Assembly: GCF_029338555.1 (NCBI RefSeq)
Contig: NZ_CP119990.1
Coordinates: 124,001-188,000 of the forward strand
DNA from: Halobaculum marinum
GTDB taxonomy: Archaea > Halobacteriota > Halobacteria > Halobacteriales > Haloferacaceae
Length of the DNA stretch: 64,000 nucleotides
Direction of reading: 5' to 3'
Part shown: one piece after another, positions 15,876 through 20,852 of the stretch
Position numbering within the stretch: the first letter of the stretch is position 1
Layout of the letters: every line of letters starts with the position of its first letter
Notes under the pieces: generated by a model
What the model was told of the DNA's origin: nothing
The model's database searches: none
Seen by the model: only the letters and a program-made list of their open reading frames with translations
Program-made: the position numbers and the translations under genes

Positions 15876-17279
15876 ATGTCGAACGACGAACGACCGACGG
15901 TCACGGTCGACCGGCCGGGGGCCACCTCCGACCCCTCGTCCGCCGAGCGCACCGCGCTGGCGTGCTTGCGCGCAGGCGTGGCCGCCGCGCACCCCAGGCG
16001 TGTCGTCGTCGACGGTGTCTCGGTCACCGGCGACACCCTCCGCGTCGCGAACGCCGAGTACGACCTCACGGCCCACGACCGACTGATCGTCGTCGGCGGG
16101 GGGAAGGCGGCCGACGGCGTGGCAACCGCATTGGAGGCGGTCCTCGGCGACCGAATCGACGACGGCGTCGTCGTGTGCGACGCGGTCGCCGACGCTGACG
16201 AGGGTGGGGCAACGGACGGGACCCGACGGGTCCGACGCGTCCGTGGTGGTCATCCGGTCCCGACGGCCGAGGGCGTCGCGGGGACCGAGGCGGCGCTGGA
16301 GCTCGTCAGATCGGCCGACGAGCGGACGCTCGTCCTCGCGGTCGTGACGGGCGGGGCGAGTGCGCTGTTCGCCGCGCCTGCGACGGGGGTCGACCTCGAC
16401 GCGCTCCGCCACACGACGCGCGCGCTGTTGGACGCGGGCGCCGAGATTAGCGAGATCAACGCGGTCCGCAAACACCTCTCGCGCGTCAAGGGCGGGCGCT
16501 TGGCGGCGGCAGCCGCGCCGGCGACGGTGGTCGGACTCGCGCTCAGCGACGTGGTGGGCGACGACCTCGCCGTGATCGGGAGCGGGCCGACGGCACCCGA
16601 CGAGTCGACGTTCGCCGACGCGCTCGCGGTGCTCGACCGGTACGATCTCGCCGTCCCGTCGGGGGTGCGGACGCATCTGGAACGCGGTGCAGGCGGCGAG
16701 GTCTCGGAGACGCCCGGATCCGACGACCCGGCGTTCGACCGCGTCACGACGCACGTGCTGGCGAACGCCCGCACTGGGATCGACGCGGCGGCAGCCACAG
16801 CGCGCGACCGCGGCTACGAGCCGTGTGTGCTCTCCAGTCGGATCCGAGGGGAAGCGAGCGCGGCGGGCGTCACCCACGCCGCCGTCGCGGAGGAGGTCGC
16901 CGCCTCGGGCGACCCGGTCGACCCGCCGGCGGTCGTCCTCTCGGGCGGCGAGACGACCGTCACCGTCACCGGCGACGGCGTCGGCGGCCCGAACTTGGCG
17001 TGCGCGCTCGCGACGGGGATCGAGTTCGCCGACCCGCGCTCGCCGCTCGCGGGTCGCGACTGCGCGTTTCTCGCGGTCGACACCGACGGGCGCGACGGCA
17101 GCACCGACGCCGCGGGGGCGCTCGTAACGCCCGAGACGGTCGTCGACCGGGCGACCGCCCGCGACGCACTGGCGGCCGACGACGCGCTCCCGGCGCTCGA
17201 CGACCGCGGCGCGCTCGTCGTCACTGGCGCGACTGGGACGAACGTGAACGACCTTCGGGTGCTCGTCGTCGAGGAGTGA
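15876..17279 (+). CDS. Glycerate 2-kinase (GckA/MOFRL family, DUF4147)
   Basis: A 467-residue kinase that converts D-glycerate to 2-phosphoglycerate with ATP. The N-terminal DUF4147 domain shows VVGGGKAADGVA (about residue 75), TGGASALF, INAVRKHLSRVKGGRLA and ALSDVVGDDLAVIGSGPT; the C-terminal MOFRL domain shows VLSGGETTVTV, then GVGGPNLACALA and a closing TDGRDGSTDAAGALV. These are all diagnostic. In haloarchaea the product feeds lower glycolysis from glycerate. An AGTTAACG box lies about 31 nt before the ATG. It is convergent with the gene at 17289, with 9 bp between stops. Confidence 0.95.
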   Translation: MSNDERPTVTVDRPGATSDPSSAERTALACLRAGVAAAHPRRVVVDGVSVTGDTLRVANAEYDLTAHDRLIVVGGGKAADGVATALEAVLGDRIDDGVVVCDAVADADEGGATDGTRRVRRVRGGHPVPTAEGVAGTEAALELVRSADERTLVLAVVTGGASALFAAPATGVDLDALRHTTRALLDAGAEISEINAVRKHLSRVKGGRLAAAAAPATVVGLALSDVVGDDLAVIGSGPTAPDESTFADALAVLDRYDLAVPSGVRTHLERGAGGEVSETPGSDDPAFDRVTTHVLANARTGIDAAAATARDRGYEPCVLSSRIRGEASAAGVTHAAVAEEVAASGDPVDPPAVVLSGGETTVTVTGDGVGGPNLACALATGIEFADPRSPLAGRDCAFLAVDTDGRDGSTDAAGALVTPETVVDRATARDALAADDALPALDDRGALVVTGATGTNVNDLRVLVVEE

Positions 17280-17288
17280 CGGGACGGG

Positions 17289-18851
17289 TCACGGGCGCCC
17301 GACGGCGGCGGACAGCCACCGAGTGAATCGTGTCGCCGCGAGTTCCACGTCTGCAGTCGTTAGGAGTGACGCGAGCGCACCGACAGTGATGCCCCACACG
17401 AGGTGGCCACCCAGCGAGACGGGGTCGAGGTTCGGGACGGCGGCGGCGATGCCGACCGTGCGTAGCCAGAGGCCGAGGACGACGCCCGACCCGATCAGCC
17501 ACAGGAGGACGCCGTAGCCGGCGCCGAGCAGCACTGACCCGCGGACTGAGGAGGCGACGGTCGCCGGGCGGCCGACGGCGGTGACGGCCACGAAGACGGT
17601 CGCGAACACCCCGCTGTGGAACAGGTGGGCCACCCACCCCGCGGCGCTGCTCTCGGCGCCGTACAGCGCGCCGATGACCGCCAACGACCCGGTTGCGGCG
17701 TGGAGCACACCGCCCATCAGGACGCCCGCGACGAGGCCGACGCCGAGCGCGGCCCACAGTCGGGCGCCCGCGACGCCCGGGTCGTTGCTCGGGGGGACGT
17801 TGCGGCCGGTCCGCGGGAGTCCGACTCGAACTGTCGTCGTGTCGCCGTCGTCGTCGACGGCGAGCGTGCCCCCGTACTGGGCTACGAGCAGTCTGACCAG
17901 CGGTATCCCGTAGTCGACGTCGTTGTGCTCGTACTCGGGGACCCCGTCGACGAGCACCCCTCGGTCGCGGTCGGAGAGCCACGCGCCGGGGGCCGCGACC
18001 GCCACCTCGACGACGCGCTCGGTGGCCGTCACCTCGACGCTCGCCGCTCCGCCGGCGCGGGCCGGCATCGCGAGCAACTCAGACAGCAGTGTCACCAGGT
18101 TCTCGTCGGCGCGCACCGACACCGTCGGCAGGTCGACGTCGTGGGTGTCGGCGGTCGCGGTCGTGGAGGCCGCTTCCAGCGCCCGGTCGACGCGGACGGG
18201 AACCAGTCCGGAGACGGTGTCCTCGTCCGACCGGAGCAGCACGCGCACCTCGTCGAGCGTGTGCTCGATCCGTTCGACAGCGTCGTCGACGGCGGCCCTG
18301 CTCCGCCCGTCGTCGTCACCACGTTCGGCGAGCAGTTCGGCGTGACCCCGGATCACCGTCAGCGAGTTCAACACTTCGTGGCGCAGCAGGCGATTCAACA
18401 GGACCGACTGCTCGGCCTGTCGGGCGAGCACCTGCCGCCGCCCCTCGGCGGTCGCCGACTGGACGCCGACGACGACGCCGACGGCGCCGCCCGCGACGAC
18501 CGACCCAGCGACGACACTCCCCGCGCGGAGGGTGACGGCGCCGCCAGCCTCGGCGACTGCGGGGAGCGCGGTCAACAGCGGGGTGACGACGATGCCGAGT
18601 AGGAACCAGACGGCGACCGTGCGCGCGTACTCACGGCTGTGCGTGCTCACCGCGAGATTCACCCCGTACAGCGCCGTGGCGAGGCCGCCAGCCAACGGCA
18701 CCAGTTGGGCAGTCGTCGCGAGGGGAGCCGTCCCCATGCCGCTGAACACGACGCCGGCCAACAGGAGGCGGGTCGACGCGAACGCCACGACTGCGATCAC
18801 GATCCCCCCTGGCTTGAGCGCGAGTTGGTCGCCTGCGGAGGGCACGTTCAT
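17289..18851 (-). CDS. Membrane histidine-kinase-like protein with degenerate ATPase core
   Basis: A 520-residue protein. Residues about 10-135 form several transmembrane helices. A DHp helix with an H-box (LLRHEVLNSLTVIRGHAEL, His at about residue 160) follows. The next region has the HATPase layout, but the N-box Asn is missing (NLVTLLSELLAMPARAGGA) and the D-x-G-x-G loop is replaced by SDRDRGVLVDGVPEYE; only the C-terminal block GIPLVRLLVAQYGGTL is kept. About 165 more residues form a second block of membrane helices. It may be a pseudokinase sensor. A TATTAG box lies 29 nt before ATG 18851, supporting that start. Confidence 0.8.
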   Translation of the reverse strand: MNVPSAGDQLALKPGGIVIAVVAFASTRLLLAGVVFSGMGTAPLATTAQLVPLAGGLATALYGVNLAVSTHSREYARTVAVWFLLGIVVTPLLTALPAVAEAGGAVTLRAGSVVAGSVVAGGAVGVVVGVQSATAEGRRQVLARQAEQSVLLNRLLRHEVLNSLTVIRGHAELLAERGDDDGRSRAAVDDAVERIEHTLDEVRVLLRSDEDTVSGLVPVRVDRALEAASTTATADTHDVDLPTVSVRADENLVTLLSELLAMPARAGGAASVEVTATERVVEVAVAAPGAWLSDRDRGVLVDGVPEYEHNDVDYGIPLVRLLVAQYGGTLAVDDDGDTTTVRVGLPRTGRNVPPSNDPGVAGARLWAALGVGLVAGVLMGGVLHAATGSLAVIGALYGAESSAAGWVAHLFHSGVFATVFVAVTAVGRPATVASSVRGSVLLGAGYGVLLWLIGSGVVLGLWLRTVGIAAAVPNLDPVSLGGHLVWGITVGALASLLTTADVELAATRFTRWLSAAVGRP

Positions 18852-18918
18852 ACTGGTGCGTCTGGGCCCTGGGGCTAATACCTGCCTCCGAGTGTCGCTC
18901 ACCTCACACGTCGGGCGA

Positions 18919-19488
18919 TCACTCGTCCAACGCGCCGTTCAGCACCTTTGCGGCCACGAGTACCGGGTCCCACACCGGGCTGAACGGCGGTGCGTACGCC
19001 AGGTCGAGGTCACCCTCGACGGCCTCGACGACGGCGTCGACGTGGCGCCCGCGAGCGCGGCGACTGCGCATGCAGGAGCCGTACTCGTCCCACGGGACCA
19101 ACTCGTAGTCGTCGTTGCGCACGCGCTTGGCGATGGCGTCCTGGGCACTCCCGACGTAGGCGGCGCCGTCGCCGGTCCACAGCTTCAGCCCGTTGTCCGA
19201 CGCCGGGTTGTGCGAGGCCGTCACCGAGACGCCGGCGTCGGCGCCGTACCACTCGACCGCGCGCGCGACCGTCGGCGTGGGAACCTCGCCAAGCGTAATC
19301 ACGTCCGCGCCACACTCGCGCAGCCCCGCCGTCAGCGCGTCGGTCAGCGCCGGACCAGTGTCGCGCGGGTCGCGACCGACAACGACGCGTCGGGCCCCCT
19401 CCGAGGCGACCGCGCGGCCGACGCCCAGCGCGACCGCTCCGGTGACCTCCTCTCCGACGACTCCACGGATACCACTCGTTCCGAACAT
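18919..19488 (-). pseudogene. Phosphomannomutase N-terminal domain fused to a CoA-disulfide-reductase-type tail
   Basis: An open frame of 189 codons. Residues 1-157 match domain I of alpha-D-phosphohexomutases (phosphoglucosamine/phosphomannomutase): FGTSGIRG, VVGRDPRDTG, the phosphoserine loop TASHNP with Ser92, and DNGLKLW. The family is normally about 450 residues; the metal-binding DGDxDR loop and sugar-binding domains are missing. From about residue 159 the sequence switches to DLDLAYAPPFSPVWDPVL and AAKVLNG, the characteristic C-terminal end of pyridine-nucleotide-disulfide reductases such as CoA-disulfide reductase/NADH oxidase. The gene is therefore a chimera, probably from a deletion joining two genes. 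A TAACAA element sits at -35, so it may still be expressed. It cannot be a working mutase. Confidence 0.85.
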
Positions 19489-19513: not shown

Positions 19514-19523
19514 GTTTGTTACC
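19514..19523 (-). promoter_or_regulatory. Glycan-locus promoter element GGTAACAAAC
   Basis: Variant of the TATAACAAT element; its first base is exactly 35 nt upstream of the ATG at 19488. Confidence 0.6.
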
Positions 19524-19550
19524 ACCCGACTATCGAGGAACAGTCAGCTG

Positions 19551-20702
19551 CTACTGGTCAGAGAAAGTGGTATCGGTCGCACGGCCGCCGTCGGATTCGA
19601 CCGCGCGCTCTGCCCCACGGCGCGGCGACTGCCCGTTTGCGACCGGCGCACGGGTGTACGTCGCACTCGACGGACGAGTCTGCTCGCCGGTAGGCGTCCC
19701 GCGATCGGGGAGGATCACCTCGTCGAGGTGCTCGTTGGCGCGCATGTCCATCGCCATCGCGGCGACGAACGAGAGCACGCCGAGGACGAACACCGCCGTC
19801 GACAGCAGTCCGCCGACGAGCAGCGACGCCCCACTCGCGAGCGTCGCCAGGAGGCCGACGCCGGCAACCCCCACCGCACCGGCGCCGAGCGCGTACGCGA
19901 CGACGAGCGGGTTGAAGTCGTAGACGACGTAGTTCGTGCGCAGGCGCCACAGGAAGTTGCGCAGTAACATCCACGACACGCGCGGCACGTACGTCCGGTA
20001 ACGGATGTGACTCTCCTCGTCGCCGTAGATGATGGGGTTGGGGATGTCGACCACGCGGAGGCGAGCGACGTTGAGCTTCACGAGCAGGTCGTTGCAGTAG
20101 CCGTAGAACTCGTACATCTCGTCGATGTCCGCCTCGTGGAGCGCGCGTCGGGAGATGGCGGTGTAGCCGCTCTGTGGATCGCCGGTGGACCAGTAGCCGC
20201 TGGCGATCTTCGTGAGCGCCCCCAGGATGCCGTTGCCCACGAAGCGCAGTCCCGGCATGTCCCCGTGGTCGCGCCGACCGGCGAAACGGTTCCCCTTCAC
20301 GTAGTCGGCCTCGCCGTCGATGATCGGGTCGAGCAGCGTGCCGAGCACGTCGGGGTCCATCTGGCCGTCGCCGCCCATGACGGCGGTCGCGGCGATGTTG
20401 TCTTCGCGGGCGCGGAGATACCCAGTCTTGATCGCGCCGCCGACCCCACGGTTCTGCTGGTGTTGGATCGGGACGACGCGCTGGTCGAACTCGTCGCTGC
20501 GTCTCGCCCGTGACGCTTCGGAGTCGGCTCTGCGGTCGATCTCGACCGCGCGCTGGATCTCCGTCCACGTGTCGTCAGTGGACGCGTCGTCGATCACGTA
20601 GATACGGTCGACGAACGCGGGCACCGTGACGACCGTCTCGCGGACGAACGGTTCCTCGTTGTACGCCGGGATCACGACCCCGACTGTGTGGCCTCGATAC
20701 AT
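19551..20702 (-). CDS. Glycosyltransferase family 2 (polyprenyl-phosphate sugar synthase-like)
   Basis: A 383-residue membrane-associated GT2. The catalytic domain (residues 1-240) shows VGVVIPAYNEEPFVRETV, VIDDASTDDTW, and the metal-binding MGGDGQMDPD, followed by YVKGNRFAGR and STGDPQSGYTAISRRAL, typical of dolichol-phosphate mannosyl/glucosyl transferases (DPM1/AglD/AglJ-like). Two C-terminal helices (about residues 275-325) anchor it. The expected reaction loads a sugar from a nucleotide donor onto dolichol phosphate for surface glycan assembly. It shares a divergent promoter region with the giant surface protein. The Ser/Arg-rich last 45 residues are unusual for the family. Confidence 0.92.
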   Translation of the reverse strand: MYRGHTVGVVIPAYNEEPFVRETVVTVPAFVDRIYVIDDASTDDTWTEIQRAVEIDRRADSEASRARRSDEFDQRVVPIQHQQNRGVGGAIKTGYLRAREDNIAATAVMGGDGQMDPDVLGTLLDPIIDGEADYVKGNRFAGRRDHGDMPGLRFVGNGILGALTKIASGYWSTGDPQSGYTAISRRALHEADIDEMYEFYGYCNDLLVKLNVARLRVVDIPNPIIYGDEESHIRYRTYVPRVSWMLLRNFLWRLRTNYVVYDFNPLVVAYALGAGAVGVAGVGLLATLASGASLLVGGLLSTAVFVLGVLSFVAAMAMDMRANEHLDEVILPDRGTPTGEQTRPSSATYTRAPVANGQSPRRGAERAVESDGGRATDTTFSDQ

Positions 20703-20753: not shown

Positions 20754-20763
20754 TTTTGTTACC
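20754..20763 (-). promoter_or_regulatory. Glycan-locus promoter element GGTAACAAAA
   Basis: Variant of the TATAACAAT element in the divergent region. It is 61 nt from the GT2 ATG at 20702, so this transcript would carry a short leader of roughly 25 nt. Confidence 0.55.
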
Positions 20764-20842
20764 CTTCTCCTGTTAGAGAAGCCGGAGACTACGGGACGGT
20801 GGCCACCGAGGGCGGGCGAACCCCGCGTTCTCGAAGCCGACC

Positions 20843-20852
20843 TATAACAAAG
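20843..20852 (+). promoter_or_regulatory. Glycan-locus promoter element TATAACAAAG
   Basis: Starts exactly 35 nt before the ATG at 20878 and therefore selects that ATG over the GTG at 20869. It forms a divergent pair with the element at 20754. Confidence 0.75.

What the first reader, a model, noticed from the sequence alone, without database searches (positions are those of the whole stretch)
18919..19488. A phosphohexomutase N-terminal domain fused in frame to the tail of a disulfide reductase
Residues 1-157 are domain I of a phosphomannomutase-type enzyme including the phosphoserine loop. The last 31 residues carry the LAYAPPFSPVWDPVL signature of the C-terminal dimerisation domain of CoA-disulfide reductase/NADH oxidase. 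Both families are recognisable and unrelated, so a deletion has joined two genes. The frame remains open and still has a promoter element at -35, so the chimera could be expressed as a dominant fragment or a new small protein.
Basis: partly seen in the sequence, partly recalled or inferred. Interest (0 to 1): 0.72.

Follow-up and report, generated by a model that had tools for sequence, protein, structure and literature searches.

The report
Gene fusion left by megaplasmid deletion
In a salt-loving archaeon (Halobaculum), the break-and-rejoin that removed about half of a large plasmid stitched the first third of a sugar-phosphate enzyme gene to the last few codons of an unrelated redox enzyme gene; it is a clear scar of genome rearrangement, but most likely not a working new protein.

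Summary
ORF 18919-19488(-) encodes 189 aa. Residues 1-160 are domain I of an archaeal GlmM/PMM-type phosphohexomutase, and residues 164-189 are the end of a CoA-disulfide-reductase-type flavoprotein. Residues 161-163 (LDL; window 19000-19008) are common to both parents.

In sister Halobaculum species both parents are intact genes on one megaplasmid, 81-234 kb apart. The upstream flank here matches the mutase locus and the downstream flank matches the reductase locus, so the join is a rearrangement junction. At the join the parents share 5 bp (H. lipolyticum DT31) to 9 bp (H. limi). This fits microhomology-mediated end joining. Junctions of this kind between these two genes stay in frame 55-79% of the time without any selection.

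The rest of both genes is missing from the whole genome. The home replicon is about 213 kb, against 337-487 kb in most sisters, and it retains only one arc of the ancestral plasmid. Part of the other arc survives on a second, mosaic plasmid, so excision with partial capture is possible but not shown.

No homologue among 54 checked carries this combination. Domain I shows no relaxed constraint, so the event is probably recent. "Dominant fragment" is unsupported, because neither full-length partner remains. Ordinary but unusually well resolved.

The parts
18919..19488 (-). Chimeric ORF, 189 aa, ATG start, TGA stop
19009..19488 (-). Mutase-derived part: codons 1-160, domain I of an archaeal GlmM/PMM-type phosphohexomutase; phosphoserine loop TASHNP at residues 90-95
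   Evidence: Pfam PGM_PMM_I 2.2e-33; Arch_GlmM positions 3-163/444; 91% identical to H. lipolyticum DT31 glmM, 74-82% to six held sister genomes
19000..19008 (-). Junction zone: codons 161-163 (LDL), common to both parents in the same codon register; 5-9 bp microhomology
   Evidence: three-way comparison of chimera, mutase and reductase genes; run lengths 5 (DT31) and 9 (H. limi)
18919..18999 (-). Reductase-derived part: codons 164-189 plus stop, C-terminus of a CoA-disulfide-reductase/NADH-oxidase-type flavoprotein
   Evidence: mostly 88-91% identical (residues 154-189) to the C-terminus of full-length ~480 aa sister genes; PDB CoA disulfide reductase C-termini
19514..19534 (-). Conserved upstream element GATAGTCGGGTGGTAACAAAC, inherited from the mutase gene; probable promoter
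   Evidence: conserved in G000, DT31 and six sister genomes; GTAACAAA at 19515-19522
19551..20702 (-). Family 2 glycosyltransferase gene: neighbour upstream of the mutase gene in sisters (5' flank of the junction)
   Evidence: Pfam Glycos_transf_2; synteny
17289..18902 (-). Histidine-kinase-like gene: follows the reductase gene in H. limi (3' flank of the junction)
   Evidence: HisKA 26.1 bits, just under the 26.9-bit cut-off; same adjacency in G003 only
15876..17279 (+). DUF4147 (glycerate-kinase-like) gene: neighbour of the reductase gene in all sisters compared

Best explanation
It is the scar of a single large illegitimate recombination on an ancestral Halobaculum megaplasmid. SHOWN: the 5' half and its upstream flank are the mutase (glmM-like) locus, and the 3' end and its downstream flank are the CoA-disulfide-reductase-type locus. 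In sisters these loci are 81-234 kb apart on one replicon. The rest of both genes and their inner neighbours are not in this genome, and the two parents share 5-9 bp in the same codon register at the join. INFERRED: a double-strand break (or breaks) was repaired by annealing of this short homology (microhomology-mediated end joining). The intervening arc (about 193 kb in the closest relative, 214 kb in H. limi) dropped out, and the frame stayed open because the matching LDL codons were in register. The event is recent relative to the split from H. lipolyticum, since the mutase part shows no relaxed constraint. If translated from the surviving mutase promoter, the product is an orphan domain I with a floppy tail of about 29 residues. 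It lacks the metal, sugar and phosphate-binding domains of the mutase and the FAD/NAD domains and active-site cysteine of the reductase, so it most likely has no enzymatic function and is on its way to decay.
For: Two-sided synteny to sister loci. Replicon-wide map: C2 matches DT31 133.1-296.5 kb as one arc and switches at the chimera. Whole-genome search finds no second reductase of the family and no orthologous remainder of the mutase. The inner neighbours of both breakpoints have only 27-50% paralogues on the chromosome. Microhomology of 5-9 bp: a run of >=5 bp is expected at 1.2-2.0% of random joins between these genes, >=9 bp at 0.03-0.07%, and 55-79% of such joins are in frame. C2 closes on itself with a 38 kb terminal repeat, giving a circle of about 212.8 kb, against 337-487 kb in five of six sisters. 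Domain I versus DT31: dN/dS 0.096, 5 derived residues here versus 8 in DT31. No homologue in other species has the fused form. The model shows a well-folded domain I and a tail with pLDDT about 50. Microhomology-mediated end joining is the reported end-joining route in Haloferax volcanii, which lacks Ku (PMC7776575).
Against: No reads, transcript or second strain could be examined. The parent sequences of this exact lineage are unknown, so the microhomology length is bracketed from relatives. About 21 genes of the lost arc have relatives on the second plasmid C3, so a pure one-step deletion may be too simple. In two sisters (G005, G006) the two genes are on opposite strands, so gene order on these plasmids shuffles and the arc lost is known only from relatives. 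Absence of relaxed constraint is also what a functional chimera would show.
Confidence: 0.82

Rival explanations
1. Replicon fission: one recombination between the mutase and reductase loci split the ancestral megaplasmid into two circles. C2 kept one arc, and the other arc (after losses) lives on in plasmid C3.
For: Of DT31 plasmid genes with a relative on C2 or C3, all 84 of arc A are on C2 and all of arc B (32 rows, 21 distinct) are on C3, none crossing over. C3 is collinear in blocks with DT31 8.9-52 kb. The cytochrome oxidase gene on C3 lies on the mutase/reductase megaplasmid in other sisters. A haloarchaeal chromosome split by recombination between genes is documented (PMC6063281).
Against: The reciprocal junction (reductase N-part to mutase C-part) is absent. 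C3 carries an Orc1/Cdc6 and a ParA that match a different plasmid in G004 at 95% and 88%, so C3 is a mosaic, not a clean fission product. Against H. limi the partition is not clean.
Confidence: 0.2
2. The chimera is an expressed, selected small protein: domain I keeps a sugar-phosphate-binding or scaffold role under the old mutase promoter, with the reductase tail as a new C-terminus.
For: Promoter element conserved; frame intact; no relaxation in domain I; domain I predicted to fold alone, mean pLDDT 86.8, matching phosphohexomutase structures.
Against: A recent event explains all of these without function. In-frame joining is the expected outcome of microhomology between these genes. The tail is predicted disordered. 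No other species has the form. Domains II-IV are lost.
Confidence: 0.07
3. Assembly artefact: the junction is a misjoin of two distant loci.
For: The assembly has residual indels: its 38 kb terminal copies differ by 27 gaps and 6 mismatches, and Orc on C3 is frameshifted in one redundant copy.
Against: The junction lies outside the redundant ends and in a contig that closes as a circle. A misjoin would also have to explain why both gene remainders and their neighbours are missing from the whole genome. A 5-9 bp overlap is far too short to mislead an assembler.
Confidence: 0.04

Closest known systems
Archaeal phosphoglucosamine mutase GlmM (TIGR03990 Arch_GlmM) / PMM-PGM phosphohexomutases (PF02878 domain I)
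   Same: Residues 1-160 are domain I with the TASHNP phosphoserine loop; upstream element and glycosyltransferase/PKD neighbours as in intact sister genes
   Different: Domains II (metal, DGDAD), III (sugar, GEPSG) and IV (phosphate, RASGTQP) are missing; TIGR03990 score is 175.6, against a cut-off of 439
CoA disulfide reductase / NADH oxidase family flavoproteins (PDB 3kd9, 4fx9, 6ruz)
   Same: Last about 26-29 residues, LDLAYAPPFSPVWDPVLVAAKVLNGAL, mostly 88-91% identical to sister genes over residues 154-189
   Different: About 450 N-terminal residues, with FAD and NAD domains and the active-site cysteine, are missing
Deletion-generated fusion genes and microhomology-mediated end-joining products in haloarchaea (PMC7776575)
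   Same: Large loss of DNA, short shared sequence at the join, hybrid ORF
   Different: A natural event of roughly 190-210 kb on a megaplasmid; the pathway is inferred from the scar only
Haloferax volcanii chromosome split through sod1/sod2 recombination (PMC6063281)
   Same: One haloarchaeal replicon reduced to part of itself by recombination between two genes
   Different: There 600 bp near-identical genes recombined and both products remained; here the genes are unrelated, with 5-9 bp in common, and the reciprocal junction is absent

Membership tests
Phosphohexomutase (GlmM/PMM-PGM) | Domain I with phosphoserine loop | tested here: met
   PF02878 2.2e-33; TASHNP at 90-95; domain I fold, Foldseek E 8.3e-18 to 9du5
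Phosphohexomutase (GlmM/PMM-PGM) | Domains II-IV with metal, sugar and phosphate loops; full length about 440-460 aa | tested here: not met
   ORF ends at 189 aa; Arch_GlmM matched only at 3-163/444, far below cut-off
CoA disulfide reductase / NADH oxidase | C-terminal dimerisation-domain signature | tested here: met
   PDB matches of residues 160-184 to 6ruz, 3kd9, 5l1n, 4fx9
CoA disulfide reductase / NADH oxidase | FAD/NAD-binding domains and active-site cysteine | tested here: not met
   Absent from the ORF; sister proteins are 480-485 aa
Deletion-fusion scar (microhomology-mediated) | Each side syntenic with a different intact locus on one replicon | tested here: met
Deletion-fusion scar (microhomology-mediated) | Remainder of both genes missing | tested here: met
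Deletion-fusion scar (microhomology-mediated) | Short shared sequence at the join | tested here: met
   5-9 bp from relatives; exact parents unknown
Deletion-fusion scar (microhomology-mediated) | Junction present in single molecules | not testable with these tools
   no reads available
Natural two-domain protein family | Same combination in independent species | tested here: not met
   54 homologues checked, none with the reductase tail; 11 genomes of the genus; plasmid collection

The most novel reading that the evidence does not exclude
The fused ORF is expressed from the old mutase promoter and kept by selection as a new stand-alone sugar-phosphate-binding or regulatory domain with a reductase-derived tail: a caught-in-the-act birth of a small protein by megaplasmid rearrangement.
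Probability: 0.06. Interest if true: 0.6.

Novelty: new member of a known kind. Interest (0 to 1): 0.3.

Why it matters
It gives a base-level scar for how a haloarchaeal megaplasmid lost roughly half its length, and it points to short-homology end joining as the route. It also shows that an open, promoter-bearing in-frame chimera needs no selection: in GC-rich coding DNA with codon periodicity most microhomology joins between two genes stay in frame (55-79% here). That is a useful caution for anyone reading in-frame fusions as evidence of function.

Tried and rejected
Natural fusion family: rejected, all checked homologues are full-length mutases or broken without the reductase tail. Several hits appeared to cover residues 1-185/189 (L016, L018, L023, L042, L051), but this was only alignment spill-over into domain II. 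Second copies of the parents: not present. Dominant-negative fragment: no full-length partner in the genome. Clean replicon fission: tempting from the DT31 partition, but C3 has an Orc and ParA of another plasmid type and the reciprocal junction is missing. Structure model with longer reductase tails in the alignment: first alignment A1 misplaced the tails, so A2 was used.

Full report
WHAT WAS CHECKED. ORF 18919-19488 on the minus strand translates to 189 residues as stated. Pfam finds phosphohexomutase domain I at residues 2-127 (E = 2.2e-33). NCBIfam's archaeal GlmM model matches only its first 163 of 444 positions and stays far below its cut-off. The PDB search of the single protein returns phosphohexomutases for residues 1-158 and, separately, NADH oxidase and CoA disulfide reductase C-termini for residues 160-184. 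Both halves are therefore real.

WHERE IT LIES. The window is part of contig C2 (250,847 bp) of a 3-contig genome of the genus Halobaculum. C2 carries a 38 kb terminal repeat, so the replicon is a circle of about 212.8 kb. Intact orthologues of the mutase lie on secondary replicons of six held sister genomes (74-82% identity) and on the plasmid of H. lipolyticum DT31 (91%). Intact reductase genes of about 480 aa, whose C-terminus is mostly 88-91% identical to residues 154-189 here, lie on the same replicon as the mutase in five of those six and in DT31. The two genes are 81-234 kb apart in those sisters.

THE JUNCTION. On the mutase side the upstream glycosyltransferase and PKD-protein genes match the mutase locus of the sisters. 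On the reductase side the histidine-kinase-like gene (in H. limi) and the DUF4147 gene (in all) match the reductase locus. Mapping the whole of C2 onto the DT31 plasmid gives one continuous arc, 133.1-296.5 kb, that closes on itself exactly at the chimera. Comparing parent genes codon by codon puts the switch in codons 161-163 (LDL; window 19000-19008). The two parents share 5 bp there in DT31 and 9 bp in H. limi, in the same codon register. Random joins between these genes reach >=5 bp in 1.2-2.0% of cases and >=9 bp in 0.03-0.07%; of joins with at least 5 to at least 9 bp, 55-79% are in frame. The open frame therefore follows from the joining route and is not evidence of selection.

WHAT WAS LOST. 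No other reductase of the family exists in this genome, whereas 9 of the 11 genus genomes have one. The remaining two thirds of the mutase is missing; only chromosomal paralogues at 57% or less are found. The genes that flank the inner sides of both breakpoints in DT31 have only 27-50% relatives on the chromosome. In the closest relative the missing arc is about 193 kb (a 357 kb plasmid after trimming its 49.6 kb redundancy, minus the 163.5 kb retained); in H. limi it is 214 kb. About 21 distinct genes of that arc have relatives on the second plasmid C3 and none on C2, while 84 genes of the other arc are on C2 and none on C3. This hints that part of the excised arc survived. However, C3 has the Orc1/Cdc6 (95%) and ParA (88%) of a plasmid type seen in G004, and the reciprocal junction is missing, so C3 is a mosaic and fission remains a minority reading.

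HOW IT MOST LIKELY AROSE AND WHAT IT DOES. Haloarchaea such as Haloferax volcanii lack Ku and use microhomology-mediated end joining, which deletes DNA (PMC7776575); the scar fits that route (inference). The upstream element GATAGYCGGGTNGTAACAAA, about 34 bp before the ATG, is conserved with few substitutions in all eight loci compared, so transcription is plausible (inference). Domain I shows dN/dS 0.096 against DT31, with 5 derived residues in this lineage and 8 in DT31. That means no measurable relaxation, which fits a recent event. The structure model gives a confident domain I and a low-confidence tail with one weak helix (pLDDT about 50), and Foldseek's best matches are phosphohexomutases, aligned over about 160-170 columns. 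With domains II-IV and the whole flavoprotein core gone, catalysis is not expected. A dominant-negative role lacks a partner in the genome.

ALTERNATIVES. Assembly error is unlikely: the join lies outside the redundant ends, the contig closes, and the missing halves are absent everywhere. The assembly does carry indels, though (27 gaps in 38 kb between terminal copies), so the junction should still be read through. A natural family with this combination was not found in 54 homologues, in the genus or in plasmid records. A selected new small protein cannot be excluded (about 6%).

VERDICT. A real, well-resolved fusion scar on a reduced megaplasmid; a new member of a known kind; interest 0.3.

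Noticed in passing
G000 C2 (9-38048 = 212811-250847), C3 (1-47673 = 279002-326684); NZ_CP126155.1 (1-49608 = 356975-406565): All three plasmid sequences are untrimmed circles with 38-50 kb terminal redundancy at 99.88-99.92% identity (on C2 the copies differ mostly by indels); true sizes are about 212.8, 279.0 and 357.0 kb.
   Followed up: partly
G000 C3:33422-34782 and 312440-313801: The Orc1/Cdc6 gene is frameshifted in one redundant copy and intact in the other, a direct example of assembly indel error.
   Followed up: yes
G000 C3: C3 is a mosaic: its Orc and ParA resemble a plasmid of G004 (95% and 88%), while the cytochrome oxidase cluster at 126-134 kb matches the mutase/reductase megaplasmid of other sisters.
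   Followed up: partly
window 17289-18902: The histidine-kinase-like gene sits beside the reductase locus only here and in H. limi; in other sisters it is elsewhere or absent, so it moved in or out of this spot.
   Followed up: partly
window 19515-19522, 20755-20762 and about 20842-20852: GTAACAAA occurs twice in the window (0.06 expected), both times just upstream of glycosylation genes on the minus strand, with a related ATAACAAA before the divergent PKD-protein gene; possibly a shared promoter element.
   Followed up: partly
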